This document shows positions 1,933-60,851 of a stretch of 64,000 nucleotides of DNA, piece by piece. The stretch comes from a virus. Location: IMG/VR virus record IMGVR_UViG_3300027754_000034, positions 124,001-188,000 of that record. One strand, given 5' to 3'. The position numbers and the translations under genes are program-made. Every line of letters starts with the position of its first letter. Within the stretch, counting starts at the first letter, position 1. A model generated the notes under the pieces. The model was not told the DNA's origin. It made no database searches and was given only the letters and a program-made list of their open reading frames with translations.

Positions 1933-3234
1933 TCATGGCGCCTCGAGCGCGCGATCGATCACGGCGTCGCTCCACCTGAGCACGTGCTCGGGGTCGAAAC
2001 AGGCCGCCAGGGCTGCGGGTGTGAGAACCCGCACGACGTCGGGATCGGCCGCTAACAGCGTTTGAAACTCGCCATGCCCTTCGAACGAACGCATTGCCGA
2101 GCGTTGCACGACGACGTAGGCGTCCTGGCGCGCCATGCCCCTGCGGACGAGCTCGAGAAGCACGCCTTCGCTGTAACAGCGTCCGCCCGATAACTCGAGG
2201 TTTCGCAGCATCGTCTCCCCGTAAACGACGAGCCCTTCCGCGAGCCCTGCGGCACGCTCCAGCATGAAGCCGAGGGTTGCGATTGCGTCCGGCGCAATCA
2301 TTCTCTCGACGGACGAATGCGAGATGTCGCGCTCGTGCCAGAGGGCGACATTCTCAAGCGCCGGGATGACTGCCGCCCGCACGACACGCGCGAGGCCGCA
2401 CAGGTTTTCACTTAGGATTGGATTGCGCTTGTGAGGCATTGCGCTCGAGCCTTTTTGGCCGCAGGTGAACGCTTCCTCCGCCTCGGTGACTTCGGTGCGC
2501 TGCCAGTGTCGTACGTTCGTCGCGAGGCGCTCGATCCCTGCGGCTACGAGTGCGAGCGCGGCGAAGAAGGCTGCGTGACGGTCGCGTGCGACGACTTGGG
2601 TGGACACGGTCTCGGGGCGCAGGCCGAGGGTCTCGAGTGCTTTTGCCTCGAGTTCGGGTGAGAGGTGCGCGTAACTGCCGACCGCGCCGGCAAGCTTCCC
2701 GACTGCGATCTCGTCCCGCGCGATTCGCAGTCGATGGCGGCCCCGTTTCAGTTCGGCAAGGTGGCCTGCGAGCACCATGCCGAAACGCAGGGGTTCGGCG
2801 TGGATCCCGTGGCTGCGGCCGATGATCATCGTGTTGCGGTGCTCGTCCGTGCGCTTCGCGAGTGCGGCAATAAGGCGGTCCTGCCGCACGGCGAGGAGGT
2901 CACAGGACTGGACGAGGAGCATCGCGAAGCTCGTGTCGAGCACGTCGCTCGAGGTCATGCCGAAGTGGAGCCAGCGTGCGTCGCTTCCGGCGAGCTCTTC
3001 GACGTGCGTCAAAAATGCGATCACGTCGTGCTTCGTCGTGCGTTCGATCGCATCGATGCGCTCGGGATCGAGCTTGAGCTCTTTTGCGCGAATGTTGGCC
3101 ACGGTTCCAGCGGGGACGACGCCGGCTTCCTCCATGGCCTCACACGCGGCAAGCTCGACGGCCAACCAGGCTCGAAAACGGGTGAGCGGGGACCAAAGCT
3201 CCAGAAATTCGGCAGGAGTGTAGCGGGGGATCAT
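1933..3234 (-). CDS. purB: adenylosuccinate lyase PurB
   Basis: 433 residues, the usual bacterial PurB length. The fumarase/aspartase superfamily signature GSSAMPHKRNP is at 262-272. Catalytic histidines are in TKHDVIAF (H69) and SHGIHAEP (H142), and TSSDVLDT is at 94-101. The enzyme eliminates fumarate from adenylosuccinate or SAICAR. In Z-DNA phages the host PurB performs the same step on the PurZ product, so a phage copy may supply dZMP. The start is the ATG at 3234, whose A overlaps the stop of the upstream gene (ATGA). An in-frame extension to 3291 would run through that gene. Base composition is much more GC-rich than most of the window, suggesting recent transfer. Confidence 0.93.
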   Translation of the reverse strand: MIPRYTPAEFLELWSPLTRFRAWLAVELAACEAMEEAGVVPAGTVANIRAKELKLDPERIDAIERTTKHDVIAFLTHVEELAGSDARWLHFGMTSSDVLDTSFAMLLVQSCDLLAVRQDRLIAALAKRTDEHRNTMIIGRSHGIHAEPLRFGMVLAGHLAELKRGRHRLRIARDEIAVGKLAGAVGSYAHLSPELEAKALETLGLRPETVSTQVVARDRHAAFFAALALVAAGIERLATNVRHWQRTEVTEAEEAFTCGQKGSSAMPHKRNPILSENLCGLARVVRAAVIPALENVALWHERDISHSSVERMIAPDAIATLGFMLERAAGLAEGLVVYGETMLRNLELSGGRCYSEGVLLELVRRGMARQDAYVVVQRSAMRSFEGHGEFQTLLAADPDVVRVLTPAALAACFDPEHVLRWSDAVIDRALEAP

Positions 3235-3407
3235 GGCAGGCGGACGGTGTCCCGCTCCTTCACCGCGACGTCGTGGAACGCTTTGGCACACGCAAGCTCG
3301 GCTTCCAGCAAAACGATTTTCTCGCGTAGGGCGTCACGTTCTTCGACGGCCATAACCGTCTTGCCGCACATCCGTCGAACTAACTCTTGGATGATGTCGT
3401 AACTCAT
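3231..3407 (-). CDS. 58-residue protein coupled to purB
   Basis: The frame begins at the ATG at 3407 (MSYDIIQELVRRM), ends LP-stop at 3231 and overlaps the purB start as ATGA. This is typical of translational coupling and is the main reason to believe it. It is predicted helical with heptad-like EERDALREKIVLLEAEL, resembling a short coiled coil, like the larger coiled-coil protein upstream. High GC matches purB. No known family. Confidence 0.65.
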   Translation of the reverse strand: MSYDIIQELVRRMCGKTVMAVEERDALREKIVLLEAELACAKAFHDVAVKERDTVRLP

Positions 3408-4158: not shown

Positions 4159-4414
4159 CTTCGGCTCCATGCATCGCGCTCGCGAGCCGCCCTCCAGCTC
4201 GGTACGCCTCGACAGCGTGAAGCAACGCACCGGCAGCGCGGAGCGTCTCGCCCCTCTGGCTGGTTAAAAGACACTGAGCGTCCACGATTTGGTGCAAATC
4301 GCCGCCTTCGCGATCTATCGCACGCGCCCTATTTTCTATGCGGTGTAAGTCTGCTGATGCGTCGTAATATCGCTCAGCAGCGTCGATCAGTTCTTTGATA
4401 ACGTCAGGTTCCAC
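4151..4414 (-). CDS. hypothetical helical protein
   Basis: 87 residues from a GTG start at 4414 preceded by AGGAGA at suitable spacing; no in-frame ATG exists earlier. Helical, with EPDVIKELIDAAERYYDAS and a run of Arg/Ala. It overlaps the coiled-coil gene by 8 bases, so the two are probably translated together. First gene of the GC-rich block ending at purB. Confidence 0.6.
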   Translation of the reverse strand: MEPDVIKELIDAAERYYDASADLHRIENRARAIDREGGDLHQIVDAQCLLTSQRGETLRAAGALLHAVEAYRAGGRLASAMHGAEDE

Positions 4415-21492: not shown

Positions 21493-22593
21493 TCATTTCA
21501 AGACCTTCCGGACGGCCAGGTAGGTGGCCATTACGGATGGGATCTTCTGCATGCTGAAAGACTTTATCAAGTCCATGTTCAGCGCGGATTTCACCGCCGC
21601 GACCTGGAATTCAGTGGGGATTTCCTGCAACCAATTGAAGACATTGGTAGCTACCTTGTCGACGGATGCCTGGTGTTTCGTCTTATCCTTGAAGTCCGTT
21701 CGACGGCACTCCTGGGCAACGGCAGACACGGAGCCGATCGCGCAGACCAATTGCTTATCAATCGTCATCGTGTCCATGTTCGGCTTGGTCCCATCTGCCA
21801 CCAGCTTGTCGATGATAGGCTCGACGTGGCGGTAGTGGTCCAGCCAAACCCGGAACTTTACCGCAGCCTCACTCCCGACCCGGCCTGCAACCAGCATGGT
21901 CTGGAACTCGACCGAATCTTTGGACGTCGTCTGGTCCACTTCCCGAGCCGCCAGGCTCCAGGAGCGGGGAGACGGCCTGCAATAGGCAGTGGGGTCACCC
22001 TCAACCGAAGGACGGCTGAGGAATTCCTGATTCTTGCTCAGGAATCCGACCACAAGCGGATTTAGACCCGCGTCCTGTGCCCATTGCCTCCATGGTTCAA
22101 AGCTGTGTGTCAGCTTATACACCTTGCAACGGTTAGTCAGCGCGTGCGACACGGGCTGGCTGTGTGCCCCCTCGTCGGGTAGATTACCCGTTGCGATGAT
22201 GGCTTGAATCGAAAGCTTCGTCCCATTGAGGGTATGGGACTGGAACAACTCCAGGAGAGGATTCTGAAGCTCAGGCTTCGACTTGTCAACCTCATCCACG
22301 AGGAGGACCACCGGTCGATCCACCCTACCCTCAATGGGTAGGAAACGGGGTCGAGCATAGTCCACGCTCTGGTCCTCGGTGATGATGGGGAGACCGAGCA
22401 AATCCGGTGCTTCAAGCACCGACAAGTTCAGGTAGTACACCCCAAACCCCTCTGCCTCAGCGGCTTGGACCGCCATTTCGGTCTTGCCGATCCCCGCCTG
22501 ACCGAAAACCATGAGGTTTCCACCCGTTCGGACATTGAAGCGTAGAACCTCGGCGTAGGTATCCTGGGTGATTTCGACAACATTGGTGAGCAT
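21493..22593 (-). CDS. MoxR-type AAA+ ATPase
   Basis: 366 residues. Walker A GQAGIGKT at 31-38, the MoxR-like 'LNLSVLEAPDLLGLPII' segment, Walker B 'VVLLVDEVDKSKPEL' near 95, sensor 1 'AIIATGN' and arginine-bearing C-terminal helical domain. MoxR ATPases work with VWA proteins; the DUF2201/VWA partner is at 17860-19341. Start ATG 22593 follows AAAGGTAATACAAAA. A GC-rich element is 61 bases upstream and a strong hairpin follows the stop, so it is probably a single-gene transcript. Confidence 0.92.
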   Translation of the reverse strand: MLTNVVEITQDTYAEVLRFNVRTGGNLMVFGQAGIGKTEMAVQAAEAEGFGVYYLNLSVLEAPDLLGLPIITEDQSVDYARPRFLPIEGRVDRPVVLLVDEVDKSKPELQNPLLELFQSHTLNGTKLSIQAIIATGNLPDEGAHSQPVSHALTNRCKVYKLTHSFEPWRQWAQDAGLNPLVVGFLSKNQEFLSRPSVEGDPTAYCRPSPRSWSLAAREVDQTTSKDSVEFQTMLVAGRVGSEAAVKFRVWLDHYRHVEPIIDKLVADGTKPNMDTMTIDKQLVCAIGSVSAVAQECRRTDFKDKTKHQASVDKVATNVFNWLQEIPTEFQVAAVKSALNMDLIKSFSMQKIPSVMATYLAVRKVLK

Positions 22594-40496: not shown

Positions 40497-42179
40497 ATGG
40501 ATTTAACCGAACACTTCATTCGGACCATTCCTGATTCACATGAGTACCAAGAACGTTTAAAATTAGAACTTTCTTGGTTTCGGGGTAGCGCGGCTGAACC
40601 TTATTTATTAACCGTCGCCCAAATATGCAGAGCAACAGTCGATATACCTCGAATTATTCGCGGATCAGCAGGTTCCAGTCTTGTCGTCTACGCCCTCGGG
40701 ATTTCAGACATTGATCCCGTTCATTGGAACATTGAGCCAGAACGGTTCTTCCATCCCCGACGACATTCTCTTCCCGATATCGATTTAGACTTCCCCGACA
40801 ATCGTCGTGACGAAGTCTTCGAACGCATCTACAATTTATTTCCCGGAAGAGCAGCTCGAATCTCTAATCATTCTCAATTTTCCGACGCCGGGTCCATTCG
40901 ACAAGCCGTTCGGTTTCTCGGTTATCGACACCATTTACCCAGTAAATTCCTTCTTTCCGACGTCGTTCCCGGTCTTGAATCTCGCGCCGTCGAAATCGCT
41001 TCAGAGTTACGACACCAAGTCTACAACATATCGCTTCATTGCGGCGGAGTCGTCGTTTTCGACCACCAGGTTCCACCACATCTTCTAACAGATTCCCCCC
41101 GACAAATTCGACTCGATAAGTTGGAAACCGAACATCATCAATTTATGAAAATCGACATTTTATCTAACATTTCGCTCACCCAACTCCACGCAATATCGGA
41201 CGCTCCCTTTTCCTCATATTCTGAAAAGGACGAACTCACATCCCGTCTCTTATCTAGCGGGCGTTCTCTCGGCATCACTCAAGCGGAGTCTCCCGCTTTC
41301 CAGAAGCTCCTTCGAGCACTTCGTCCTAATTCTCTTCCAGACGTCGTTCTCGCTATGGCTCTCATTCGTCCAGCATCCGCTTGGCGAGCCCACAGGCGCG
41401 ATTTTCTTAATCAGTGGCATCAAAATAGAAGAACTTCTCTCATGGTTTATGAGGACGACGCTACGCAGGTAATATCACGCCTCACAGGTTTACCAGGTCC
41501 TGAATCCGATGAAATTCGCCGCGCCTTTATAAATCGTCATCTGGAAATAACCAAAACATTAAGAGACAAATTAGAATTAACAGAAGAAGGTAACGGGATA
41601 ATCCAGGATATAGAGGCTTTTCGCACATTTTCAATGTGCAAGTCTCATTCAGTATCTTACGGGCGAGTTGTATGGGCACTCGCATATCATAAAGCCCACA
41701 ACCCCTCCGCTTTTTGGTTATCCACCATCAACCATGCAAAGTCCATGTGGCGTGATTGGGTGCACATTGAAGAAGCGAAACTGTCAGGACTCGACATAAA
41801 GCCGGGGAAAAAACCCTTCATCCTATCCGGTTCTACTTTATATCCTTCGGGATATACACCAACACTTTTCCTTCCGGATCCCCTTTGGGAGCTTAAAACT
41901 TACGGGATGTGGTCCGGCAATACGTTTCCAGCCGGATGTGGTCACAGTTATGATGAGACTCGAATCTCTTTCAAAGGAATAATCGGTACTTCTCGAATTT
42001 TAAAATCAAAAGATGGAGACGCCACTACATTTGTTACCATTGGGACTTCTCCCGGCGTATACCGCGATCTAATCTTAGAGGGAGCGATCGATACGACTCG
42101 CCGGAACTTTATCGAAGGTACCGGGGATTCGTATGTAACAAATGGGAGTGAATCTGTTAAAGTAACTCATTACGAGTTA

Positions 42180-42185
<6 letters not shown>
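40497..42185 (+). CDS. compact DnaE-type DNA polymerase III alpha
   Basis: 562 residues. The palm of C-family polymerases is clear: '[19 protein letters not shown]' near 57-74 (compare GSAAGSLVAYALGIT) and catalytic '[17 protein letters not shown]' at 91-107. The fingers motif '[25 protein letters not shown]' is near 378. Cellular DnaE has about 1,160 residues with an N-terminal PHP domain and C-terminal HhH and OB domains. This protein starts at the palm and lacks the PHP domain; the remaining C-terminus is short. It is therefore either a minimal polymerase or one part of a split enzyme. Probably the replicative polymerase; overlaps the convergent collagen-like gene by 6 bases. Confidence 0.85.
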
Positions 42186-43986
<1,801 letters not shown>

Positions 43987-44005
43987 TAATGACCTATAGT
44001 CCGTA

Positions 44006-44896
<891 letters not shown>

Positions 44897-46416: not shown

Positions 46417-47106
46417 GTGGAAAGACACACTACACTTGATCAAAATTACCATAAATACGCTCCATCAGAATGTCTAAACCCCAAAGAATGGTTCGAAAAG
46501 GCATTCCAGTTCGGTCATGAATATTATGGTTCAGAAATAACTAGAGCTAGTGCAGTAGATTTTAAAAAGGTTTCCCCCAGTTTATTCTTCTCAGAATATA
46601 TCTGGGTAGTTCATGCGACAGGCTTTTCAGCAAAAGCAGTTAGTAAATTTATCGAACGTCTGTCGAAAGCATATGGGGAGTATGATACACTAAGCCAAAA
46701 ATCCATAGAAGAGGCACTAATGATAGTAACTCCTGTCGTGAATAACCCTCCTAAAATTAGAGCCATATGGGAGACATCAAAATTACTTAATCATGGCATT
46801 ATACTTATGGGTTGGGAGGAGTTCAAAAATACTAAATTAAACGACCTAGAAAAACTGCAATCACTTCCATATATAGGAAAAGTAACTAAATATCATTTAG
46901 GCAGAAATATTGGAATGTTAGATTGTGTAAAACCAGATTTACACTTAGTGAGATTGAGGAAAAAATTCGGGTACGAATCTGAAATAGAAATGATAAGAGA
47001 TATGTCTATGGGTCACGAATTACCACTAGGAATCGCTGATATGATTGCTTGGTACTATGCTTCTACCTTTGGAACCAGCCATATGAAAAATAAAGGAGAC
47101 CGATAA
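46417..47106 (+). CDS. HhH-GPD-type DNA glycosylase-like protein
   Basis: 229 residues from a GTG. 'LEKLQSLPYIGKVTKYHLGRNIGMLDCVKPDLHLVRLRKKFG' contains a helix-hairpin-helix (LPYIGKVT) and the following conserved Asp (KPDLHLVR) of the endonuclease III/AlkA superfamily. These remove damaged or unusual bases. The N-terminal half is a helical domain without a recognised iron-sulfur cluster. In a phage with modified DNA it might remove wrong bases (inference). Its stop overlaps the dNMP kinase start (TAATG). Confidence 0.75.
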   Translation: MERHTTLDQNYHKYAPSECLNPKEWFEKAFQFGHEYYGSEITRASAVDFKKVSPSLFFSEYIWVVHATGFSAKAVSKFIERLSKAYGEYDTLSQKSIEEALMIVTPVVNNPPKIRAIWETSKLLNHGIILMGWEEFKNTKLNDLEKLQSLPYIGKVTKYHLGRNIGMLDCVKPDLHLVRLRKKFGYESEIEMIRDMSMGHELPLGIADMIAWYYASTFGTSHMKNKGDR

Positions 47107-47915
47107 TGAATTATATTTTTGGAATATCTGGATTCGCAGGTATTGGTAAAGATGAATTTTGTAGAAGACTTGTGTCGAATTACGGGGCAACGCATATTGG
47201 ACTCATAGATCCAGGTAAAAGAACATTGCACGAAATATATGGATTCTCGGAAAAACAGTTATTTGGTCCTTCGAAGTATAGGAATTACGGTGACTTGAGA
47301 TATCCTAAAGCGCCATTTTTTGAGGAGAAACTCATTAGAACGAACATCAAGAATGAAACAGGCAAACACTTTTGGGTTAAATCTCTAAATTCCCATATCG
47401 ACAGTCAAGACTGTATTTCAGAAGGAGACCCAAAGTACTGGCTATCTCCTAGAGAAGCATTACAACAAGTGGGGGAACTTTTAAATAATTTATATCAAAA
47501 TACTTGGATAGATTTAGGATTGAAGACCCATCAAGTATTAGCTGAGGGAGGATATAAATATTCTAGAATGGAAGGGTTAAAAAAAGATAATTCAATACCA
47601 AAACCGAAGACATTCATTTCCTGTTTTTCAGATTTTAGACATCATAATGAAATTCATGCTACTAGAAAATTAGAATCTGCGGATTTGAAGACTATTTTAA
47701 TAAGAATTAAATCCTGTAAAATTCCGCAACCACAACATGATCATAAATCTGAGATAGAACAAACGACTATTCCAGATTCACATTTCGATTTTATCATTCA
47801 AAATGACGGTACTCTAATGTTATACCATGAAATGATAGATAAAATATTATATGAAGTATTTAATACTAATCATCTGGAATCTCCTGAATCATCAATGATC
47901 AATGGAAGTACTTAG
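47106..47915 (+). CDS. deoxynucleoside monophosphate kinase
   Basis: 269 residues. Walker A 'GFAGIGKDEFCR' at 9-16, then 'YWLSPREALQQVGE', 'FISCFSDFRHHNEI' and 'FDFIIQNDGTLMLYHEM', the ordered features of the T4 gene 1-type dNMP kinase family. It makes dNDPs from dNMPs and, in a phage making dZMP, could accept that substrate (inference). Coupled to the glycosylase gene; overlaps the convergent downstream gene by 17 bases. Confidence 0.87.
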   Translation: MNYIFGISGFAGIGKDEFCRRLVSNYGATHIGLIDPGKRTLHEIYGFSEKQLFGPSKYRNYGDLRYPKAPFFEEKLIRTNIKNETGKHFWVKSLNSHIDSQDCISEGDPKYWLSPREALQQVGELLNNLYQNTWIDLGLKTHQVLAEGGYKYSRMEGLKKDNSIPKPKTFISCFSDFRHHNEIHATRKLESADLKTILIRIKSCKIPQPQHDHKSEIEQTTIPDSHFDFIIQNDGTLMLYHEMIDKILYEVFNTNHLESPESSMINGST

Positions 47916-48782: not shown

Positions 48783-49115
48783 ATGATTTTAGAAATGAGA
48801 TGTGAAAAATGCAGAGTATCTGATTATTGTCCTTCGAAGGGTTCGTCTCCTGGCGTCCTTAAAAATGGAAAGCATGCGTTATGTAGATTAGTAGGGGGAT
48901 ATGGACGAAAAACTCTTCCTGAAAAAATCCTTTCTAAGGAATCGAAAGAATTGTCAGCAAACGGTAGGAATTGTCTAACAATAGCTGAAATTCCCATTAT
49001 TTTAGGAAATGATGTATTTTACAAAATAGAAAAGATATTCTCGCCCCCAGTTTTACATGAGAGAGAATCTCTCTCATGGCATCAGAAAATGTTAATGCCT
49101 AAAAGAAAATCATAA
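48783..49115 (+). CDS. Cys-rich hypothetical protein
   Basis: 110 residues. 'MRCEKCRVSDYCPSKGSSPG...HALCRLVGGYG' has CxxC and two more cysteines close by, probably one zinc site. Start could be ATG 48783 or 48795. TGTAAAGTATATTA lies 30 bases upstream. Overlaps the convergent ThyX gene by 6 bases. Confidence 0.65.
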   Translation: MILEMRCEKCRVSDYCPSKGSSPGVLKNGKHALCRLVGGYGRKTLPEKILSKESKELSANGRNCLTIAEIPIILGNDVFYKIEKIFSPPVLHERESLSWHQKMLMPKRKS

Positions 49116-50405
49116 ATGATCACCTATTTCGTCTGGGGAGATCGCGTTGCACCACTGCATTAATTCAGGAAATTTATTATTTACTTCTTCAAACATTTTA
49201 AATGCTATTCTTCTATATGAAATATGACCTTGAGGCTTAGTTCTCAATTCAGTGATATAATATAACTCCGCTAGGTCCATCTTAAATATACTACGATGTA
49301 AATAACCCATGGGAATGATGTACTGGTATATGTCATTGTCATGAATTACTGTGTCTTCTTCGTAATTCAATAACTGATCCATAACGTTCCTATATTTTTC
49401 CTCCAGGGGTGTGTTAACAAAGTCATCCGGCACTGAGTACCCATAGTATGTAGTTAAAGGTTCAGGAAATTGTTCACACCTTCGATGTCTTTGTAAGTCT
49501 CTATATGCCCCATAATCCATTATTATCTCTAATGTGAAATCTACTAATCTAAATATTTCAACAGTTCTTCTATTTCCTCTTTTATTCATCAGTGTATTCA
49601 ATTCCCCCCATTCCATACCATATATGCTCTTTGCATATTTCTTCATTTTCTCGAAGGACTTAAGGTCGCAATTTAGTATCTTTACTGATTCTTTATCTTT
49701 TACAAAATAATCTGGTATGATCGCCTTCAACCTTGGTTCAAAATTATCTGGTTCAATTCCCCCCAATAATGAAGGACATAATTCCGAAGCACATTTTAAA
49801 ACCTCTGCACCTATGGTTCGTATCTCCGGATTTTTATGCCCTAAAGCCTCCGATATCAAATATCTTAAATCCCTAAGATTTATTACGCAAGCCAAGTTGG
49901 TTCCTGTTCCAGCTGGTAATAAGTATCTAAGACTATCAAAAGCCCTGGCTTTTACTCTATTTTCATTAATGTCTTGAGTTCCAATGAGGCATGCTGCTCT
50001 ATCTAGAGCAGCATGATGCATTTCATCATACGCTTCATAATATCTTTTAGCAAAGTTCGTAAGTGTTGTATTACCAGGTAAGGGATTAATAAAACTATCC
50101 TTACTAAAATATTGATATCTGGTACTTTTCTCTGAATAGCCTGCTCTTTGATATTTTTCTATGAATTTAGATGCAATTATACTAATTCCTTCAAAGCAAA
50201 TAGGGATTACAGCTAGCTCTGCAACACTAGAATGACCATAACTTATAGTCCATTTAGAATGGAATTTATTCGCTTCTTCGTTAGTTAACGTGTTTATTAT
50301 ATCCTTTGCAGATAAGGACGACCTAGAATACTTAGCAAGAGTAGTGGCTTGAATGGAAGGAGGTAATAAATTTCCATCCTTAGATTTAAGAACATATATA
50401 TCCAT
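49110..50405 (-). CDS. thyX: flavin-dependent thymidylate synthase ThyX, double-length
   Basis: 431 residues from ATG 50405 (MDIYVLKSKDG, AGGATTCTTT before it). 'IEKYQRAGYSEKSTRYQYF' in the N-terminal half corresponds to the ThyX RHRxxSxNExSxRY motif, and 'YRDLQRHRRCEQFPEPLTTYYGY' in the C-terminal half looks like a second, degenerate copy. So the protein resembles two fused ThyX folds; ordinary ThyX has 220-260 residues. The enzyme methylates dUMP using methylene-tetrahydrofolate and FAD. An internal 12-bp perfect inverted repeat lies at 49990-50015. The N-terminal half probably holds the active residues, though it lacks the first RHR in usual form. Confidence 0.82.
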   Translation of the reverse strand: MDIYVLKSKDGNLLPPSIQATTLAKYSRSSLSAKDIINTLTNEEANKFHSKWTISYGHSSVAELAVIPICFEGISIIASKFIEKYQRAGYSEKSTRYQYFSKDSFINPLPGNTTLTNFAKRYYEAYDEMHHAALDRAACLIGTQDINENRVKARAFDSLRYLLPAGTGTNLACVINLRDLRYLISEALGHKNPEIRTIGAEVLKCASELCPSLLGGIEPDNFEPRLKAIIPDYFVKDKESVKILNCDLKSFEKMKKYAKSIYGMEWGELNTLMNKRGNRRTVEIFRLVDFTLEIIMDYGAYRDLQRHRRCEQFPEPLTTYYGYSVPDDFVNTPLEEKYRNVMDQLLNYEEDTVIHDNDIYQYIIPMGYLHRSIFKMDLAELYYITELRTKPQGHISYRRIAFKMFEEVNNKFPELMQWCNAISPDEIGDHL

Positions 50406-50455
50406 AAAGAATCCTACATTCATATAATGATTCTAACAATGGAATTGGTAAGGTA

Positions 50456-51025
50456 ATGCTGGAGATTACAAAAATGTTAAATGCGGAACTAATAGAGAGA
50501 ATATCTAAAACGAAAATAAATGTGAACCCTGAAGTTTATTCACATGAAATTCAAAAAGCTTTTCTACCATGGGATGTAGATTTATCTCCCTCTGCCTTAT
50601 ACGGGTGTAGTGTTGGATGCAGGAAGTCCATGGGAATTAAAACCCCAGAAGTAAAATGGATAAGTGTTAAAAGATGGGTGAATATAACACCAATGGGTGT
50701 TACCCTCCCACCAGGGTGTTATTTATCAATTAAAAGAAAAGAAACATTTGAAGCCACTCCGACACCCAAATTCATAAAACAAGATTTCGTTTTAGTATTA
50801 TTTCCACATGGGAATGTGTGGTCACAAAAAGAAGAAGATGATCCAATTACGGAAGAATGGTTATGGTCAGAAGAAAACGGAAAAACCATCTTCGAAATGC
50901 TCATAAATAAGGATTATGACAGACCGATATCTGGATATTTTTCTTCCTGCTATGGATATATGAAGAAAAATCCTGAACAAATCGGAATACACCTAAAGAG
51001 AAAGAAAAATCTCACTAAGGTGTGA
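50456..51025 (+). CDS. hypothetical protein
   Basis: 189 residues, MLEITKMLNAELIERISKT. Beta-rich, with 'GVTLPPGCYLSIKRKETF' and 'KQDFVLVLFPHGNVWSQKEEDDPITEEWLWSEENG'. Divergent from ThyX with 50 bases between starts. No family recognised. Confidence 0.65.
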   Translation: MLEITKMLNAELIERISKTKINVNPEVYSHEIQKAFLPWDVDLSPSALYGCSVGCRKSMGIKTPEVKWISVKRWVNITPMGVTLPPGCYLSIKRKETFEATPTPKFIKQDFVLVLFPHGNVWSQKEEDDPITEEWLWSEENGKTIFEMLINKDYDRPISGYFSSCYGYMKKNPEQIGIHLKRKKNLTKV

Positions 51026-53280: not shown

Positions 53281-54174
53281 ATGAACCCCGTAAATGCATC
53301 TAATATGATGAAGAGAATGGCTGCCGCGTTAGCGGCATCCAAGTCTCCCAATAAATCTGCCGTAGCAAAAGATCTTATGGCATTATCTGACGCCATAAAC
53401 GGAAATAGAAAAGCTGAGGCTTATTTAACAAATAAATTGGCGGGAGGAAGGACTCACAAAGGAAACATACCACCCCTCCCCATGCAAGGGGAGCGTTTGG
53501 ATTTTTCTGGTATGATCCCTTTAGATAAGGATTTTCATGGGAAGGACCTGTCCGTACTGAACTTCATCGATGAGGATTTACGCAGGGCGCAATTACAAAA
53601 CGCGAAACTTAACGGGAGGGACCTGTCCGGGGCGGACCTGTCCGGGGCGGACCTGACCGGGGCGGACCTGAGCGGTGCGAAACTTAACGAGGCAACCATG
53701 AAAGGGGCGAACCTCACCGGGGCGGACCTGACCGGGGCGGTCCTGACCAACGTAAACCTGTCCGTGGCGAAACTGACCGAGGCGAACCTGTCCGGGGCGA
53801 ACCTGTCCGGGGCGAACCTGTCCGGGGCGAACCTCACCGGGGCGAACCTGTCCGGGGCGAATCTGGACGAGGCATTTCTGATTGATAAGCGGCACCCCGC
53901 ACCCACAGTAAGAGCTGAAGGACACCCAGAAATAGAATTGTTCATCCAAGAAAATCTCAGCAGAAATTATGGAGTTCATACTCTCAATGACTGGTCTGAT
54001 CTCTTGACTGATGCGGTATATGAGGCGTCCGGTGCCTACCATGGTAGTAATTTGAAAGAGCGTGTAAAAGAGGAGCTGATAAAGGAACTATTAGCGGGCA
54101 ATTTTATGAGAGGCATTATAGACTTCAGTGATATTCTGAAAAGACTTCAAATTTCGGATGTAATGATGGCATAA
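53281..54174 (+). CDS. pentapeptide-repeat protein with N- and C-terminal modules
   Basis: 297 residues. Residues 1-35 (NASNMMKRMAAALAASKSPNK) match the N-terminus of the protein at 24909. Residues about 85-200 are pentapeptides (GADLSGADLTGADLSGAKL). Residues about 205-297 match the C-terminus of the protein at 16875 (DWSDLL ... IDFSDILKRLQISDV). It is thus the full-length version from which the other family members appear to be assembled or trimmed. Start ATG 53281. Partner unknown; gyrase-like DNA-mimic function is only a family-level possibility. Confidence 0.88.
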   Translation: MNPVNASNMMKRMAAALAASKSPNKSAVAKDLMALSDAINGNRKAEAYLTNKLAGGRTHKGNIPPLPMQGERLDFSGMIPLDKDFHGKDLSVLNFIDEDLRRAQLQNAKLNGRDLSGADLSGADLTGADLSGAKLNEATMKGANLTGADLTGAVLTNVNLSVAKLTEANLSGANLSGANLSGANLTGANLSGANLDEAFLIDKRHPAPTVRAEGHPEIELFIQENLSRNYGVHTLNDWSDLLTDAVYEASGAYHGSNLKERVKEELIKELLAGNFMRGIIDFSDILKRLQISDVMMA

Positions 54175-54248
54175 TAGTAAAAATGCAACTGAACCATAAT
54201 GATCACCAAACAGAAAACACGTGGATTATTATGGCACCTCACTTGTTG

Positions 54249-54818
54249 TCACTTATTTGATGACCACACCACACGCCGACGACCTTTATCCTTAATATAG
54301 GCTCGAACTATGGATGATATTGGAATGTTTCCAGGATATCTTGCTGTCAAAGCCCCCAATCCCCCTTGCCCATCATCGATCAACAAAGGGTCAGGGGTAA
54401 TCTTCATGGAGTTAATAACCTGAATGATTACATCATTAGGTTCACCCCCGTTTTCGATGAGCTTCATGATCTCGGCCCCAGCTTCTGGATATTCATCCAT
54501 GAACTCGTCAGATGGCGGGTCTCCAAGACTATAACAGTTCACGGAGTCCTCATCCATCAAGAGAGGTCCAGGTGGAACCACCTCGATGATTACAACCTCA
54601 TCGTCTGATAGTTTTAGAATTTCCTGATAATTGTTGGCCCCTTTCATATTATTTATGAGATAAACCCCTTCTCCCGTCTTATATCCTCCCCATTTAACAT
54701 TATTAGAAGTCTTTTTCAGTCCGCTCTTAAGAATAGATTTCAACAACTTCCGATTCGTAACATGAAACCATTTATTACCGCCAGCAGCCACCCGATAGGC
54801 AACAGTGTAGAGATTCAT
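54249..54818 (-). CDS. possible ADP-ribosyltransferase-fold protein
   Basis: 189 residues from ATG 54818 (AAGGA before it). 'KWFHVTNRKLLKSILKSGLKKTS' followed by 'GEGVYLINNMKGANNY' resembles the His-containing first strand, 'L..IL..GL' helix and 'G.YL' strand of ART/KptA/DarT-like domains. An acidic C-terminal half includes IIEVVPPG and MDEDSVNCYSL. The catalytic Glu or equivalent is not assigned. The C-terminus 'IPISSIVRAYIKDKGRRRVV' is consistent with ART-like end strands. Fold call tentative. Confidence 0.5.
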   Translation of the reverse strand: MNLYTVAYRVAAGGNKWFHVTNRKLLKSILKSGLKKTSNNVKWGGYKTGEGVYLINNMKGANNYQEILKLSDDEVVIIEVVPPGPLLMDEDSVNCYSLGDPPSDEFMDEYPEAGAEIMKLIENGGEPNDVIIQVINSMKITPDPLLIDDGQGGLGALTARYPGNIPISSIVRAYIKDKGRRRVVWSSNK

Positions 54819-54956
54819 AGACATCCTTGTTGAGATAGTAGTATGCTGAATTTTATTATTACGGTGATACTTTTCTTCCTGTTATTTTAAAAAAAAATTC
54901 AGTATCATTTAGCCTTGTTGGTGTTTATCCAGTATAATCTATTTGCGTTTTACTAA

Positions 54957-54985
54957 TTGACTTTTTTGATACGTAGTGTTACAAT
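54957..54985 (+). promoter_or_regulatory. sigma-70-type promoter giving a near-leaderless transcript
   Basis: TTGACT (54957-54962), 17-base spacer, TACAAT (54980-54985), only 6 bases before the ATG at 54992. Transcription would start at or next to the start codon. Confidence 0.6.
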
Positions 54986-54991
54986 GGTTAC

Positions 54992-56515
54992 ATGATTGAG
55001 TTTTTAGATTCTGAATTTACTCTTAGAGAGTTTGGTTATTCAGTTCCTAAAAGATCAGATGATAAATGCTATGCCAAATGCTCACTTGGGAATCATTCTG
55101 TAATAACCACGTTAAGAGCTTTGAAGAGAACTCTTAAGAAGCGTGGGTTATATAGATGTTCTAAGTGCGTTTCTAACTCAGAAGAAGGCAAGCGACACCG
55201 ATCTTTGCAGGCCATTACTTTATGGTCTAATCCAGAAATAGCAAGTTTGATATCTGAAAAATCTAAGGAGTTAGCGAATAGCGAGAAGGGAAGAGCACAA
55301 CGTTCTCTTCAATCAAAGAAGGCGTGGGAGTCAGAACCCTATTCCAGAGTTCAAAAAGACCGAATCGCTAGTTTATTTAAGTCAGAAGAACATCGTAAAT
55401 TAGTATCTGAACGGAATAAAAAGGATTACCAAGAAAATCCTATTAAATATATTGAAGATAAAGTATCCGCGATGTGGTCGGATGCTGCAAAGAAAAAACA
55501 TAAAGAAGCTCTGGCTAGTCCCGAATATAGAGAAACTCACCGCCAGTTAGCCAAAACCAGGTTTGAAAACGATGAGTATAAAGAAAAAATAGCTAAGGGA
55601 CTAGAAAACTTTCCTCGTGGTGGGAAGATGTCCACGCCGGAAAAGCAGGTAAAAGATATTTTAGAAGCTCTTGTACTAGAGTATGTTTATAACAAGGCGG
55701 TAGGCCCTTATAACTTTGACTTCTATATCGAAAAACTTAACCTATATGTTGAGGTACAAGGTGAATATTGGCACAGTCTACCAAATAACGAAAGACGAGA
55801 TCGGGCTAAGTTTTCATACCTAAGAATGGCTTTTCCAGAAGCCAAATTAATTTATCTGTGGGATTATGATTTTAACTCCGGAAACGCTGAATATAAAATT
55901 CGAGAAGCATTAGGGTTATCCCTTAATTCAGCAATCGAGTTTAAGTTCTCAGAATGTTCATTGAGAACAGTTAATTCAACTGAGGCTAAGCCGTTTCTTA
56001 ACAGCTGGCATTACGCGCAATATGGAAAGGCTGCTAAATTTCTCTATGGTGTTTATTTAAACGAGTTATTAATATCAGTTTGCAAAATTGGTCCGGTGAG
56101 CCGTAAAGAAGTCGCTTCGTCAGAAGGATTCACTCCTAAAGAATGCTTCGAACTTGATAGGTTCTGCATTCACCCTTTTTATCATAAGAAAAACCTCGGG
56201 TCTTTTCTATTGAGCCGATCGGTAAAAACTTTCTTTAATGAATTTCCGCAATCTAAAGCATTAGTTAGCTTTTCTGATTCTACCTTCGGGCATGAGGGAA
56301 CTATTTATCGAGCTAGTAATTGGACGGAAGTCAGAAAAGTAAAACCTGATTACATTTATGTGGCTTCTGATGGATGGATTTTACATAAGAAAACCCTATA
56401 TAATCAAGCCGTTTCGGTACATATGACCGAAACGGCTTATGCTTCTAAGCATGGTTATAAAAAAGTATTCGGAAAAGAAAAAACGAAATTCATCACCAAA
56501 CGCTCATGTCGATAA
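54992..56515 (+). CDS. VSR/DUF559-like nuclease fused to a Mom-like acyltransferase domain
   Basis: 507 residues. The N-terminus has 'YRCSKCVSN' and helical repeats (KSEEHRKLVSERNKKDY; SPEYRETHRQLAKTRFEND) like DNA-binding regions of homing enzymes. Residues about 215-300 form a PD-(D/E)XK nuclease of the VSR/DUF559 type ('STPEKQVKDIL', 'YNFDFYIEKLNLYVEVQGEYWH', 'AKLIYLWDYDF'). Residues about 320-490 match the Mom-like family related to GNAT ('HYAQYGKAAKFLYGVYLNELL', 'ELDRFCIHPFYHKKNLGSFLL', 'ALVSFSDSTFGHEGTIYRASNW'). Phage Mu Mom modifies adenine in DNA. A 13-bp inverted repeat lies at 56406-56438. Could be a mobile nuclease or a modifying enzyme. A 23-base convergent overlap with purZ follows. 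Confidence 0.8.
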   Translation: MIEFLDSEFTLREFGYSVPKRSDDKCYAKCSLGNHSVITTLRALKRTLKKRGLYRCSKCVSNSEEGKRHRSLQAITLWSNPEIASLISEKSKELANSEKGRAQRSLQSKKAWESEPYSRVQKDRIASLFKSEEHRKLVSERNKKDYQENPIKYIEDKVSAMWSDAAKKKHKEALASPEYRETHRQLAKTRFENDEYKEKIAKGLENFPRGGKMSTPEKQVKDILEALVLEYVYNKAVGPYNFDFYIEKLNLYVEVQGEYWHSLPNNERRDRAKFSYLRMAFPEAKLIYLWDYDFNSGNAEYKIREALGLSLNSAIEFKFSECSLRTVNSTEAKPFLNSWHYAQYGKAAKFLYGVYLNELLISVCKIGPVSRKEVASSEGFTPKECFELDRFCIHPFYHKKNLGSFLLSRSVKTFFNEFPQSKALVSFSDSTFGHEGTIYRASNWTEVRKVKPDYIYVASDGWILHKKTLYNQAVSVHMTETAYASKHGYKKVFGKEKTKFITKRSCR

Positions 56516-57710
56516 TATCATCATGAACTGCCCCTGTTCCTATTAGGATAACAGGCACCCCAGCAGTTTCTTCTACTTTGTTAATGAAATCGCGGGATTC
56601 TTTAGAAAGACTCTTTAGAGCCTCCTTTCCTCCACGAATCCCATTATCATTCCAGTTTAGATATTGAACGAAGTTCACCGAGATCTTGGTAACCCCGTTT
56701 ACGCGAACGGCGTCTTCCAAGCCTATCCAAGAAAATGTAGAAACTCGTCGAATACGTTTTGTAACTGTTGTACGCTCGCGTTCTGCTAGTTTTTCTGCCT
56801 CTTCTTTAGGCATTCCCGCGTTTTTTGCTACTTGATCCCAGGTCAGCTCTTTACAATCATCGTAAAAGCCTCCTGAATACCCCTTCTGCTCTCCGTCATC
56901 CTCCACCACATTGCCTACGCGGATTGGGTAGGAGCGAAGATTCAGCCAAACATCACCCAGCATACTGGGAGGTACCGCCATGTAGTCCATAGCGGCTTGC
57001 AGGGTGCAGTTCCGACTCGTGCAGAATGGATAATGAGACCCATGGTCTATTGACAGTGCATAACCTTGGCTTCCTTCATGGAGCCAAGTATTACCTTCAT
57101 TAATCAATGAATGCGTGAGATTCCGAAATTCCATGGCAGACACCACCTGAATTTTCTCAAGTGCTTCTGCAATCCCGTTTTCTCCAATATATTTTTGGCA
57201 TTCCGAATCAGATGAAAGCAAGTCTGAGAACACATCTTCTAACTTGCGAGAAGCCACCACTGAGGCGTTTGGCTTTCGAAGAATCTTATCAGACAAAGCC
57301 GTTCCTGATCCCTGCATCGTGGAGGCAATGTGTTTGGTGGACTCCATACCATCTCGCTCACGAGAGGCATGTTCATCTGTCACATAAAGAGCTCGATCAT
57401 GAATGAAGAGACGAGGATTGCCACATTCATGCCATTCCTTCAAAAGCTGCTTCGGGGCAAATCCGGAACCTGGGCTTACAAATCCCACCATTCCAATCCC
57501 ATTCACCTTCTTAAGGATCAGAGCCGTTGGAATGGCCTTGGATACGAATTTTGTTCCATCTGCAAATATGGCGGAGTGACCGGCATTCGGAAGATTCGCG
57601 GAGGAGACGTTCACCACCCCATATTTATCAGCCAGGTATGTTGATATCTTTCCTTTCCCACTCGATCCCCACGCCTGATCCAAAATTACGTTAAATTTAC
57701 CGTTCTTCAA
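56493..57710 (-). CDS. purZ: PurZ-type (2-amino-2'-deoxyadenylosuccinate) synthetase
   Basis: 405 residues from a TTG at 57710 with GGAGG five bases before. It belongs to the adenylosuccinate synthetase superfamily but differs from PurA at key points. 'AWGSSGKGK' (14-21) replaces PurA 'QWGDEGKGK', losing the catalytic Asp; 'ANLPNAGHS' replaces 'GGHNAGHT'; 'CTSRNCT' replaces 'TSSNTTA'; 'SYPIRVGN', 'KELTWDQV' and 'TTVTKRIRRVSTFS' follow. These match PurZ of aminoadenine phages as I recall the PhiVC8 sequence. PurZ joins dGMP and aspartate with ATP; a PurB then releases fumarate to give dZMP. PurB is at 1933-3234 and dNMP kinase at 47106. Confidence 0.85.
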   Translation of the reverse strand: MKNGKFNVILDQAWGSSGKGKISTYLADKYGVVNVSSANLPNAGHSAIFADGTKFVSKAIPTALILKKVNGIGMVGFVSPGSGFAPKQLLKEWHECGNPRLFIHDRALYVTDEHASRERDGMESTKHIASTMQGSGTALSDKILRKPNASVVASRKLEDVFSDLLSSDSECQKYIGENGIAEALEKIQVVSAMEFRNLTHSLINEGNTWLHEGSQGYALSIDHGSHYPFCTSRNCTLQAAMDYMAVPPSMLGDVWLNLRSYPIRVGNVVEDDGEQKGYSGGFYDDCKELTWDQVAKNAGMPKEEAEKLAERERTTVTKRIRRVSTFSWIGLEDAVRVNGVTKISVNFVQYLNWNDNGIRGGKEALKSLSKESRDFINKVEETAGVPVILIGTGAVHDDIIDMSVW

Positions 57711-57739
57711 TGCAACCTCCGTGTTTAGAGACTATACAT

Positions 57740-58507
57740 TCAGTCTTTATCTTCAATATCATTTTTAACCGGCTTTAAATCCGAAATCAGAATTTCCGAT
57801 TCAACGCCCGAAACTCTATATAAGGTAGTTTTTTCGTATATCTTATCAAGATCTTTTTTCTCTACATATCTGGCTAGACTTCTACGAGGGTCATTTTTAA
57901 AATGACCCAAGGCAAATATTCGGGCACCCGCTAGTTGTTTAAAAGTGAATTCTCTCCCTTCTAATTTAAATTCTTTTCTTTTATGGTATCTATTTAGTTC
58001 TCTTACCTTCAAATGCCTTCTGAGAGAACGTTCACTCACGAACATCACTCGAATGGAAATGTCACTAGGTATTTTCTTAAATAATCTTAAGGAAATTCTC
58101 AAAGCATAATCGCATGCTAATGCAAAAGCATCTTGATATGAATTGGCCCTAATTAAGACACTCGCCATTCCGAAAGATTCATGCAATATGACTCGCCAGA
58201 TTTTCATATCGGGGTCTATACTTTCACCCACCAGCCTTCTAAGGGTATTTATTTTGTAATCAGGGAATGCTAATTTTTGAGCAGCATCAAATATCTGATC
58301 AAATTTAGTTTTCCCTGATTTTGCAGGATGAATCGGAATCTCTTCTAAAATACTATAATGTATAGCATTGTTTTTTATTAGTTCCGTGAGCACTTCCCTG
58401 AAGTATTCTTCATCCTTTTTACCAGACATTCTAAATATGCATTTTTCTATCGCTTCCAGGGCCTCTTCAGATAAAGGATCAACAGAACGAATTTTGGGAC
58501 TACTCAT
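57740..58507 (-). CDS. hypothetical protein
   Basis: 255 residues, MSSPKIRSVDPLSEEALEAIEKC. Alpha-rich with a basic central region (SERSLRRHLKVRELNRYHKRKEFKLEGR) that could bind nucleic acid. It lies 29 bases upstream of purZ on the same strand and is probably cotranscribed. No DatZ-type HD motif is seen. Function unknown. Confidence 0.7.
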   Translation of the reverse strand: MSSPKIRSVDPLSEEALEAIEKCIFRMSGKKDEEYFREVLTELIKNNAIHYSILEEIPIHPAKSGKTKFDQIFDAAQKLAFPDYKINTLRRLVGESIDPDMKIWRVILHESFGMASVLIRANSYQDAFALACDYALRISLRLFKKIPSDISIRVMFVSERSLRRHLKVRELNRYHKRKEFKLEGREFTFKQLAGARIFALGHFKNDPRRSLARYVEKKDLDKIYEKTTLYRVSGVESEILISDLKPVKNDIEDKD

Positions 58508-58865
58508 AAACTGTATAGTTTTAGCACAGAAGACAGACTCTGGGTACTTTACCCAATGGGATTAAATTACTTACTCGAAAAATTAATTTAATCCTAGCCT
58601 AATAAGGGAGCGGTTTTAAACCAGGAAGACCTAAGAAAAAAATAGGATCATCAGAATCGAGATTTTTCTGATTATCTGAAAATAAAGCATCTCATGATCC
58701 TTTATTTTCTTTTTCTTTTTTTGATCTGATCTTTTGTTAATTGAAATGAAATGGAAATGAACAAAGTAGATTCCTTCGTAGCAGGACACCCAGAGAAGGT
58801 AGAAGAGAAGTCAGTGAAGAAGAACGCCAAGTAAGTAGAACGCCAAGTAAGTAGAAGATTTAGAA
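58508..58865. other. 358-base intergenic stretch with one tiny possible gene
   Basis: AT-rich and without a convincing gene on the minus strand. On the plus strand a 27-codon frame (58751-58834, MEMNKVDSFVAGHPEKVEEK...) precedes the tandem repeat agaacgccaagtaagt (58817-58853). An imperfect inverted repeat (gaatcgagatttttctgatt region) lies near 58656-58680. Nothing stronger is seen. Confidence 0.5.
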
Positions 58866-59135
58866 ATGAAAGATTTTATTATAAGTAAAGAAGAGGGGAT
58901 ATTTCCTACTTTCTTTATTTTTATGGATCTTCCGAAGCATCTAGAGTATAGAGTGCAAAATATGCCCCTTTTAAAAGAAGGTATGATCGTTGATTTTAAT
59001 CTAAACATCAATGATCTTAGGTCTTTTAGACATCCCAAGATTATTAAGGGTAACCATATAATAAATAAATGTGTTTTCAAATATGGGGGAAAAAGGCCCG
59101 GTTTGGTGCAGTATGTGGAGTGGAAAGCTATTTAA
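58866..59135 (+). CDS. hypothetical protein
   Basis: 89 residues, MKDFIISKEEGIFPTFFIFMDLPKHLEYRVQNMPLLKEG. Small alpha/beta protein ending RPGLVQYVEWKAI. Intergenic repeats precede it. No family recognised. Confidence 0.6.
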   Translation: MKDFIISKEEGIFPTFFIFMDLPKHLEYRVQNMPLLKEGMIVDFNLNINDLRSFRHPKIIKGNHIINKCVFKYGGKRPGLVQYVEWKAI

Positions 59136-59552
59136 AATTTATGAAACTTATGTAGGATAGTATTAAATAAAAATATTTATTGTGTAAATTGTATATGAGA
59201 AAGTATCCTCTTATATAAAGGGTCAATTTACGAAAAAATATTTAAATCACTATTCATTGAAGGGGGTCTACACACGAGAGCGTCACTTCTCTGGGATTCG
59301 CTGGTTATTTTCCTAAATGAAAGAATGGTGTGCCAATATGCTGAAGACTGGGGTATATGGGAAAGGAGCAGTGGGGAGAAATTTTATGAAAATTTGGCGA
59401 AAATTCTTATGCTTGTTTAGTATTTACTGAACAGATATTTACTTTACTATTGACTTTAAAAGAGGGCTATGTTAGACCTCTTTTATCCGATGTTGATCGG
59501 TTCTAACCATAACTCCGATAAGTCGGCGTAGCATTCGCCGCATGGGGACTAC
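59136..59552. other. 417-base intergenic region before the sigma-like gene
   Basis: AT-rich. It contains a terminator-like hairpin AAAAGAGG/CCTCTTTT with trailing TTTT (59458-59484), a short 37-codon plus-strand frame at 59317-59430 (MKEWCANMLKTGVYGKG) without clear support, and a small GC hairpin (GGCG tagcatt CGCC) 25 bases before the sigma-like start. Probably the control region for that gene. Confidence 0.55.
59458..59484 (+). terminator. hairpin with T run
   Basis: AAAAGAGG/CCTCTTTT, 11-base loop, ending in TTTT on the plus strand. It could end read-through from 58866 or attenuate transcription into the sigma-like gene. Confidence 0.6.
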
Positions 59553-60851
59553 ATGAATTCTGAAAAAGCCGATATTTCGGCAAGTTCTTCTGTGCGTGTC
59601 ATTATTCCTACAACTTCGGAATTTTTGACTAAATGGAATGCCTGGATTCACGGCAAAGTGAGCAAGCATTATAAGCGAGATAAAGAAAGAATCCCTGACA
59701 CTGCTCAAAGGGTAAGGCTTCGTTTACTCTCCAAGGATTTCATTTCTCGTTGGTTTTTTAAACATCTCACTGACGATCTCGTTGATCTGTCAGAGGCAAT
59801 CAGTATGACTGGCAATCCTAGGATTAATTTTTCACCTAGGATTAGCCCAGTTCATGGGGGTCGCAAAGATCCTAATTCTCTTTGGAGAATTTCAGATATT
59901 CTGAATTTCAGTAATTTTGATTATGAAAGGTATTTTTATAGTACTCAGAATCACACTATAGAGACTGATAAATTTCTTCGTTTATTGGGTTACGGATCTA
60001 AAAGTACTGTTACAGGTAAGTGGGAAATAAACACCGAGGATTATAGTGTACTGGAGTCATTATATCGACAAGGTAGAATCAAACCTGCTGAACTTACGGA
60101 ACATACTTGTTCAGAATCTAACATCAAGAAGAATTCTGACGGAACATGTTTAGTAGGTGGTTGTTCAGAAAAGCATTTTAGCAAGGGTTATTGTAAACCT
60201 CATTATAGAAGTACTCGCGCCAATGCATGTTCTGAATGTGAAAAAGGAAGAAATGTACTCAAAAGTAAGGGTATTTCTCTTGCTCATAGATGGAATGACC
60301 CTGAAGTAATAAAGTCTGTTTCGAAGCTTCGTTGGAACGATTCTCAGCTGGTTCCATTCTTGCGGGATTGGAAAAGTGGAAATCTTATTAAGCATCCACC
60401 TCGCTACATTATGAGAAAGCCTTCTGAGGCTACGGTGGATGCTGGATTACTCAAATACGCTAATATGGTGATTGATAATGACGTTTTCAATCATTTTAAG
60501 AGTATGATCAGATCGGATGATGTCTCTTACATCTCATTAGATATAAAATCTGACCCTGATGGGTCTACATTTGAGAAAATGTATTGGGAGACTAGTGAAG
60601 AAGGTTCAGGAAGAACAGCAGTATTTATCGATCATAACGCTCAAAATGAATTTATTGTGACTGAAGACAGATATACTATTATTTCATTAATAAGAAAGGC
60701 GAATTTAACACAGATTGAAGAGAATATCATCAAATTTGTGGATCTAGAAGAGTCTACCATATCTGAAGTAGCAGATAAATTAGGACTAGCCCCGGCTAAA
60801 ATTAATAAAATTCGTTTAAACGCTATGAATAAAATAAGAAGTTTAGCTTAA
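59553..60851 (+). CDS. phage sigma-like transcription factor with zinc finger
   Basis: 432 residues. N-terminal 90 residues (KWNAWIHGKVSKHYKRDKERIPDTAQRVRLRLLSKDF) resemble sigma region 2. Middle residues about 195-235 'CLVGGCSEKHFSKGYCKPHY...ACSEC' form a treble-clef zinc motif (CxxxxC, CxxH) otherwise common in HNH-like proteins. The C-terminal 45 residues 'LTQIEENIIKFVDLEESTISEVADKLGLAPAKINKIRLNAMNKIRS' are a sigma-70 region-4-type helix-turn-helix. It may steer host RNA polymerase to phage promoters such as the GC-rich 24-bp element (inference). Confidence 0.72.
   Translation: MNSEKADISASSSVRVIIPTTSEFLTKWNAWIHGKVSKHYKRDKERIPDTAQRVRLRLLSKDFISRWFFKHLTDDLVDLSEAISMTGNPRINFSPRISPVHGGRKDPNSLWRISDILNFSNFDYERYFYSTQNHTIETDKFLRLLGYGSKSTVTGKWEINTEDYSVLESLYRQGRIKPAELTEHTCSESNIKKNSDGTCLVGGCSEKHFSKGYCKPHYRSTRANACSECEKGRNVLKSKGISLAHRWNDPEVIKSVSKLRWNDSQLVPFLRDWKSGNLIKHPPRYIMRKPSEATVDAGLLKYANMVIDNDVFNHFKSMIRSDDVSYISLDIKSDPDGSTFEKMYWETSEEGSGRTAVFIDHNAQNEFIVTEDRYTIISLIRKANLTQIEENIIKFVDLEESTISEVADKLGLAPAKINKIRLNAMNKIRSLA

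What the first reader, a model, noticed from the sequence alone, without database searches (positions are those of the whole stretch)
56493..57710. PurZ-type enzyme: this phage may contain 2-aminoadenine (Z) in its DNA
Seen: the enzyme has WGSSGKGK in place of the PurA WGDEGKGK, plus CTSRNCT, PIRVG and TVTKRIRRV features that I recall from PurZ of Z-genome phages. Established: PurZ condenses dGMP with aspartate, the first committed step to dZTP. Inference: A is replaced, wholly or partly, by Z. It is unusual that the window shows no DatZ-type HD phosphohydrolase, MazG or PolA-type DpoZ; the polymerase here is C-family.
Basis: partly seen in the sequence, partly recalled or inferred. Interest (0 to 1): 0.85.

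Follow-up and report, generated by a model that had tools for sequence, protein, structure and literature searches.

The report
PurZ-like enzyme clade in jumbo phages
A giant phage carries a gene from a previously unplaced branch of the enzyme family with which some small phages make 2-aminoadenine ("Z") in place of adenine; the branch runs through dozens of very large phages, so Z-containing DNA may be common among giant viruses of bacteria, though no chemistry has been done.

Summary
In detail: window 56493-57710 (minus strand, 405 aa, TTG start behind GGAGG) encodes a PurA/PurZ-fold protein with Ser16 in place of the PurA catalytic Asp. It is neither canonical PurA nor PurZ0. It belongs to a separate, strongly supported clade (100/99), probably sister to PurZ, carried by about 55 metagenomic phage contigs, 17 of at least 200 kb. 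Nearly all PurZ substrate-contact residues are kept, including an ATP-type donor pocket, and the five best structural matches are PurZ. One clade member (L284) sits in a classical purZ-mazZ-datZ cluster; others lie near purB. This supports dGMP chemistry and Z-DNA, but indirectly. However, these HD, MazG and PolA proteins lack the known specificity hallmarks of DatZ, MazZ and DpoZ. The Ser motif alone is not diagnostic: gut Clostridia, alphaproteobacteria and Nanoarchaeota have Ser-type proteins. Verdict: PurZ-like third clade; Z in DNA likely but unproven.

The parts
56493..57710 (-). PurZ-like (succino-amino-deoxyadenylate synthetase-like) gene, 405 aa, third Ser-type clade
57740..58507 (-). 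conserved unknown gene directly upstream of the purZ-like gene, same strand, 29-b gap; homologue in 14 of 20 relatives' loci, in most of them directly upstream
   Evidence: no family match
1933..3291 (-). PurB, adenylosuccinate lyase (TIGR00928 457.8 bits, cut-off 326.2); likely start about 19 codons in; G+C 65% against about 40% in the genome; expected to convert dSMP to dZMP
47106..47915 (+). deoxynucleoside monophosphate kinase-like (phrog_139), candidate dZMP/dNMP kinase; homologue in 12 of 20 loci
49110..50423 (-). ThyX, flavin-dependent thymidylate synthase; neighbour of purZ-like in 14 of 20 loci
50456..51025 (+). conserved unknown 189-aa protein, between thyX and purZ-like in most of 14 of 20 loci
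54992..56515 (+). homing-endonuclease/Mom-like fusion, convergent with and overlapping the 3' end of purZ-like by 23 b; beside purZ in 4 of 20 relatives, so probably a mobile neighbour and not part of the pathway
40497..42185 (+). C-family polymerase-like protein, 562 aa, palm (PF07733) and finger (PF17657) only

Best explanation
The gene encodes a dGMP-using PurZ-like ligase of a third, so far unplaced clade. Proposed route: a MazG-like pyrophosphohydrolase (or host enzymes) gives dGMP; the PurZ-like enzyme joins dGMP and aspartate with ATP or dATP as phosphate donor to give dSMP; PurB (phage-encoded here, otherwise host) gives dZMP; the phage dNMP kinase and host NDK give dZTP; the phage PolA copies with it, while an HD hydrolase may thin out competing nucleotides. 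Adenine in the phage DNA is thereby replaced by 2-aminoadenine, wholly or partly. Shown here: sequence residues, predicted fold, phylogeny, gene content and synteny. Inferred: every substrate and the DNA composition.
For: Of the S-2L substrate-contact positions checked, S16, N42, A43, S130, T131, R145, Q215, C230, T231, R264 and V265 are kept (only positions 130 and 203 differ), plus TTVTK and an NFxQY donor pocket identical to S-2L rather than the Asp-type site of PurA and PurZ0 (positions from PMC8342488). AF2 model pLDDT 94.3; the five best PDB matches are phiVC8 and S-2L PurZ. Trees: clade 100/99, sister to PurZ 96/85; grouping with bacterial PurA (p=0.011) or PurZ0 (p=0.0005) rejected, and an exclusive PurZ+PurZ0 clade rejected (p=0.005), so the clade lies between two lineages known to use dGMP. 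L284, inside this clade (AU p=4.5e-5 against joining PurZ), has purZ, a MazZ/DUF550-like protein (38% to S-2L MazZ, E=1.5e-12, Asp60 kept) and a DatZ-like HD protein (E=9e-10 to S-2L DatZ) in a row. L290 has purB-HAD-purZ in a row; L141 has purB about 3.4 kb from purZ; purB is in 6 of 11 large records, 5 over cut-off. HD and MazG genes abut in the own genome and in all six large close relatives.
Against: NCBIfam PurZ score is below cut-off. In the own genome HD+MazG lie about 92 kb from purZ, the HD has Ser where DatZ Ile22 excludes the 2-amino group, the MazG has Leu where MazZ Asp60 reads it, and PolA keeps the Tyr that both DpoZ clades change to Phe and lacks the DpoZ insertions. An alternative tree joining the clade to gut-bacterial Ser-type proteins is not rejected (p=0.305); the substrate of those is unknown and in several MAGs they are the only PF00709 protein found. 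Ser at this site is therefore not proof of dGMP use. purB may have been acquired more than once and was not found in several relatives.
Confidence: 0.62

Rival explanations
1. The enzyme is a functional PurA: with PurB it turns IMP into AMP to boost ATP/dATP for a large phage; Ser at the Asp13 site is tolerated. The genome is ordinary DNA.
For: PurB is co-encoded. Ser-type proteins are the only PF00709 protein found in several gut Clostridia/Tenericutes MAGs, which might need a PurA. These share NFxQY and TTVTK with the phage clade. Own HD, MazG and PolA lack Z-system hallmarks.
Against: Asp13 is 99% conserved in the PurA group of PMC12884076. The clade is nested among Ser-type lineages flanked by dGMP-using PurZ and PurZ0. 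Relative L284 has its gene in a mazZ-datZ cluster, where an IMP enzyme would make no sense.
Confidence: 0.17
2. The enzyme uses dGMP but Z is only partial: the PolA and HD enzymes are not selective, so the DNA is a mix of A and Z, giving partial protection from restriction.
For: PolA keeps canonical motif B with Tyr and lacks DpoZ insertions; the HD has Ser/Thr at the DatZ Ile22 site in all seven members; S-2L shows that a non-selective polymerase needs a strict dATPase (PMC8065100).
Against: Hallmarks were defined on two DpoZ clades and one DatZ; a third lineage could have other solutions, as PMC12884076 shows for DutZ/DmtZ.
Confidence: 0.13
3. The protein makes some other succinyl-purine or modified nucleotide (for example on 8-oxo-dGMP or GMP), not a DNA precursor, as may the NUDIX-linked Ser-type proteins of gut bacteria.
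For: The bacterial Ser-type relatives are fused to or next to a MutT/NUDIX-like domain (by eye, no family scan); they cannot be excluded as the sister group.
Against: Gene neighbourhood in the phages is DNA-precursor metabolism: ThyX, dNMP kinase, and in relatives PolA, thymidylate kinase, dUTPase.
Confidence: 0.06

Closest known systems
PurZ of phiVC8 / S-2L / SH-Ab 15497-type phages
   Same: fold, Ser in place of Asp13, nearly all substrate-contact residues tested, ATP-type NFxQ/NY donor pocket
   Different: 28-38% identity, separate clade, longer (about 375-405 aa), phages up to 436 kb instead of about 38-68 kb, gene not beside mazZ-datZ-dpoZ except in L284
PurZ0 (Arthrobacter phage Wayne, Microbacterium Jera, Streptomyces Hiyaa)
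   Same: Ser-type, phage-borne; Streptomyces members also carry a PurB-like gene
   Different: Asp-type (GTP) donor site TMxD, distant clade (joining rejected p=0.0005), dUTPase-like genes beside it instead
Cellular Ser-type PF00709 proteins of gut Clostridia/Tenericutes
   Same: Ser, TTVTK, NFAQY; possible sister group
   Different: bacterial, NUDIX-linked, Ile for Val at the 2'-OH-sensing site
Flavobacterium phage MaF61 PurA-like (PQ858689, 168 kb)
   Same: Ser-type, large phage, purB about 10 kb away
   Different: long branch, about 26% identity, NASH and RIHD variants in the pocket
DatZ / MazZ / DpoZ
   Same: the same superfamilies are present in this genome (HD, MazG, PolA)
   Different: specificity hallmarks of each are not conserved

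Membership tests
PurZ (NCBIfam NF038379) | score over curated cut-off | tested here: not met
   190.6 bits against 300
PurZ | Ser in place of PurA Asp13 | tested here: met
   S16; all clade members examined have Ser
PurZ | dGMP pocket and ATP/dATP donor pocket residues | tested here: met
   against residues listed in PMC8342488; positions 130 and 203 vary
PurZ | falls inside the clade of characterised PurZ | tested here: not met
   separate clade 100/99; sister to PurZ 96/85, alternative not rejected
PurZ | makes dSMP from dGMP | not testable with these tools
   needs enzyme assay
PurZ0 | clade membership and GTP-type donor site | tested here: not met
   AU p=0.0005; NFVQY, not TMxD
PurA | catalytic Asp13, TKLD GTP site, PurA clade | tested here: not met
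   Ser16, NFVQ, AU p=0.011
Z-cluster | purZ next to mazZ and datZ | tested here: not met
   own purZ has neither nearby; met in clade member L284
DatZ | Ile/Leu/Met at position 22 excluding the 2-amino group; Trp20 | tested here: not met
   Ser/Thr and Tyr/Phe in all seven jumbo HD proteins
MazZ | Asp60 contact to guanine 2-amino group | tested here: not met
   Leu (own), Ile/Val or similar (relatives); phiVC8 MazZ-like p26 lacks it too
DpoZ | Tyr to Phe in motif B shared by both DpoZ clades; NCBIfam cut-off | tested here: not met
   FAFIYG keeps Tyr; 68.7 bits against 500
Z-DNA phage | 2-aminoadenine in virion DNA | not testable with these tools
   needs LC-MS

The most novel reading that the evidence does not exclude
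A third, independent lineage of Z-DNA phages: jumbo phages up to about 436 kb that encode a nearly self-contained dZTP pathway including their own PurB and dNMP kinase, and that use a non-DpoZ PolA and an HD/MazG pair of new specificity to keep A out.
Probability: 0.45. Interest if true: 0.82.

Novelty: new variant of a known kind. Interest (0 to 1): 0.64.

Why it matters
Published Z phages fall into PurZ and PurZ0 groups (PMC12884076; the word 'jumbo' does not occur in it); the classical PurZ phages listed here are about 38-68 kb. If this clade makes dZTP, Z-DNA extends to some of the largest phages, the polymerase and pool-control solutions must be new (DpoZ and DatZ hallmarks are absent), and the origin of PurZ becomes testable because bacterial and phage Ser-type relatives bracket it. 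It also warns that Ser at the Asp13 site is not by itself a marker of Z phages.

Tried and rejected
Taking the Ser motif as proof of PurZ: rejected, as Ser-type proteins occur in gut Clostridia, Nanoarchaeota and alphaproteobacteria. Absence of an HD hydrolase, MazG and PolA: rejected for the whole record. HD protein as true DatZ and MazG as true MazZ: not accepted, hallmark residues differ. PolA as DpoZ: rejected on motif B and insertions. purB as an assembly chimera because of its 65% G+C: made unlikely by purB in several relatives, with G+C from 38 to 65%. A single ancestral purB: not resolved. Microcystis phage MaAM05 purB: its neighbours look bacterial, set aside. C-family polymerase as the constant partner of purZ: the DnaE-like ORF was found in only 3 of 11 records. 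No match of 54000-60000 in E. coli genomes.

Full report
1. The observation. The window is bases 124001-188000 of a 257,205-b IMG/VR virus record. Terminase, portal, head maturation protease and major head protein are encoded in the record, so it is a tailed phage; its completeness is not known, and close relatives reach 308-436 kb. The ORF at 56493-57710 lies on the minus strand, 405 aa, starting with TTG just after GGAGG. Family scans name it PurA/PurZ, with PurZ the best NCBIfam model but below cut-off.

2. Residues. Mapped onto S-2L PurZ positions given in PMC8342488, the protein keeps Ser23 (S16), Asn49, Ala50, Ser131, Thr132, Arg146, Gln190, Cys204, Thr205, Arg240, Val241, the TTVTK loop, and Asn305-Phe306-x-Gln308-Tyr309. 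The last pattern is the adenine-nucleotide pocket of PurZ; PurA and PurZ0 have an Asp there. Changes: Gly130 to Ala, and Tyr203 to Phe (variable in the clade).

3. Fold. AlphaFold2 on an alignment of 26 relatives gives mean pLDDT 94.3, pTM 0.93. Foldseek's first five PDB hits are PurZ of phiVC8 and S-2L; then P. horikoshii PurA, bacterial PurA, and PurZ0 at rank 16.

4. Relatives. Twenty viral contigs encode it at 41-68% identity, and a broader scan returned 78 loci. Leaving out classical PurZ and other branches, about 55 contigs carry this type, 17 of at least 200 kb and 10 of at least 300 kb, the largest 436,316 b. In 89-row and 51-row trees these form one clade with L030 (an Actinomycetes MAG contig, probably a phage).

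5. Phylogeny. The careful 64-row tree puts the jumbo-type clade (100/99) beside PurZ (96/85), within a larger set that also holds Clostridial Ser-type proteins and Bacillus phage BpsS-140 (100/99); PurZ0 and the alphaproteobacterial and Nanoarchaeal Ser-types lie outside that. AU tests reject union with bacterial PurA (p=0.011), with PurZ0 (p=0.0005), and an exclusive PurZ+PurZ0 clade (p=0.005), but not union with the Clostridial type (p=0.305). These groups were named after seeing the first tree, so the p-values are somewhat optimistic. If PurZ and PurZ0 both use dGMP, as the literature reports (PMC12884076; the PurZ0 biochemistry from memory), the simplest reading is that the clade between them does too.

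6. Context within the clade. As a positive control, classical PurZ contigs (L299, L304-L307, L310, L312-L314) show mazZ and datZ and in most cases dpoZ beside purZ with the same search. L284 (117,656-b contig) is inside the jumbo-type clade (joining it to PurZ costs 110 log units, p=4.5e-5) and has, directly after its purZ, a 242-aa protein whose C-terminal half is 38% identical to S-2L MazZ (E=1.5e-12; best match a two-domain protein of Acinetobacter phage DMU1, E=1.8e-16) and a 228-aa HD protein similar to DatZ (E=9e-10). No Pfam or NCBIfam model hits the former. L290 has purB, a HAD protein and purZ in one row, then a dUTPase; its purB is over no curated cut-off (221 against 326 bits). L287 has PolA, purZ, ThyX and thymidylate kinase. 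In the close group the purZ neighbourhood holds a conserved unknown gene upstream and ThyX (each 14 of 20) and a dNMP kinase (12 of 20).

7. The rest of the own genome. PolA with 3'-5' exonuclease at 77041-79836; MazG-like at 87668-88129 and HD (YfbR-like, phrog_7076 'dATP triphosphohydrolase') at 88126-88758; B12-dependent RNR, thymidine kinase, dCTP deaminase-like. PolA, HD and MazG are conserved together in six relatives of 308-436 kb, with HD and MazG abutting in each; scans for the HD and PolA returned nearly only contigs of this group or of its source metagenomes. This is inheritance within one virus group and so only weak evidence of shared function. The window has purB at 1933-3291; purB is also in five other records of eleven (one under cut-off) and about 3.4 kb from purZ in L141. 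The enzymes after PurZ were said not to be on the genomes of S-2L and phiVC8, host enzymes serving instead (PMC8342488), but Streptomyces Hiyaa-type phages carry PurZ0-like and PurB-like genes.

8. What speaks against. The own HD has Ser where DatZ Ile22 shuts out the 2-amino group, and Tyr for Trp20 (PMC8065100). The MazG has Leu for MazZ Asp60. PolA keeps the Tyr that is Phe in both DpoZ clades and lacks the DpoZ insertions (PMC8599892). So the accessory enzymes, if they serve Z, do so in another way. Ser-type cellular proteins exist, some fused to a NUDIX-like domain and some the only PF00709 protein found in their MAG.

9. Conclusion. PurZ-like third clade, dGMP use probable (about 0.7 by my judgement), Z in DNA somewhat less so (about 0.6); complete replacement is open. 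It is filed as a new variant and not as a member of PurZ proper, because clade membership and the curated cut-off were tested and not met.

Noticed in passing
L142 and L151 purZ-like genes (G025, G030): An insert of roughly 420-430 aa with intein-like ends (Cys at the start, His-Asn at the end) interrupts the PurZ-like protein right after the NAGH motif in both contigs.
   Followed up: partly
L031, L036, L044, L051 (fused), L042, L049 (adjacent): Ser-type PurZ-like proteins of gut Clostridia/Tenericutes MAGs are fused to or beside a MutT/NUDIX-like domain, and in several MAGs no other PF00709 protein was found; possible cellular PurZ.
   Followed up: partly
L069, L074, L076, L078, L070: Alphaproteobacteria and a Lachnospiraceae genome carry a Ser-type PF00709 paralogue of about 340 aa; canonical PurA was also found in the two of these genomes checked (G018, G019).
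   Followed up: no
L201, L196 (Streptomyces phages Galactica, Hiyaa): PurZ0-like, dUTPase-like and PurB-like genes together, so phage PurB with a PurZ-type enzyme has a precedent in cultured phages.
   Followed up: partly
window 40497-42185: DnaE-like protein with palm and finger domains only, 562 aa, also in G022 (567-aa frame), beside a full PolA in the same genomes.
   Followed up: partly
window 2001-4250: Island of about 50-68% G+C, holding purB and part of the next ORF, in a genome of about 40%: recent acquisition likely; of the few references the nearest are alphaproteobacterial.
   Followed up: partly
window 17860-19341 and 21493-22593: DUF2201/VWA-like protein and AAA ATPase, a MoxR-VWA-like pair.
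   Followed up: no
window 42180-44896 and 53281-54174: Collagen-like GPTG repeat proteins and a pentapeptide-like repeat protein.
   Followed up: no
G000:87668-88758 (outside the window): MazG-like and HD genes are convergent and overlap by 4 b here, but on one strand in all six relatives: a local inversion.
   Followed up: yes
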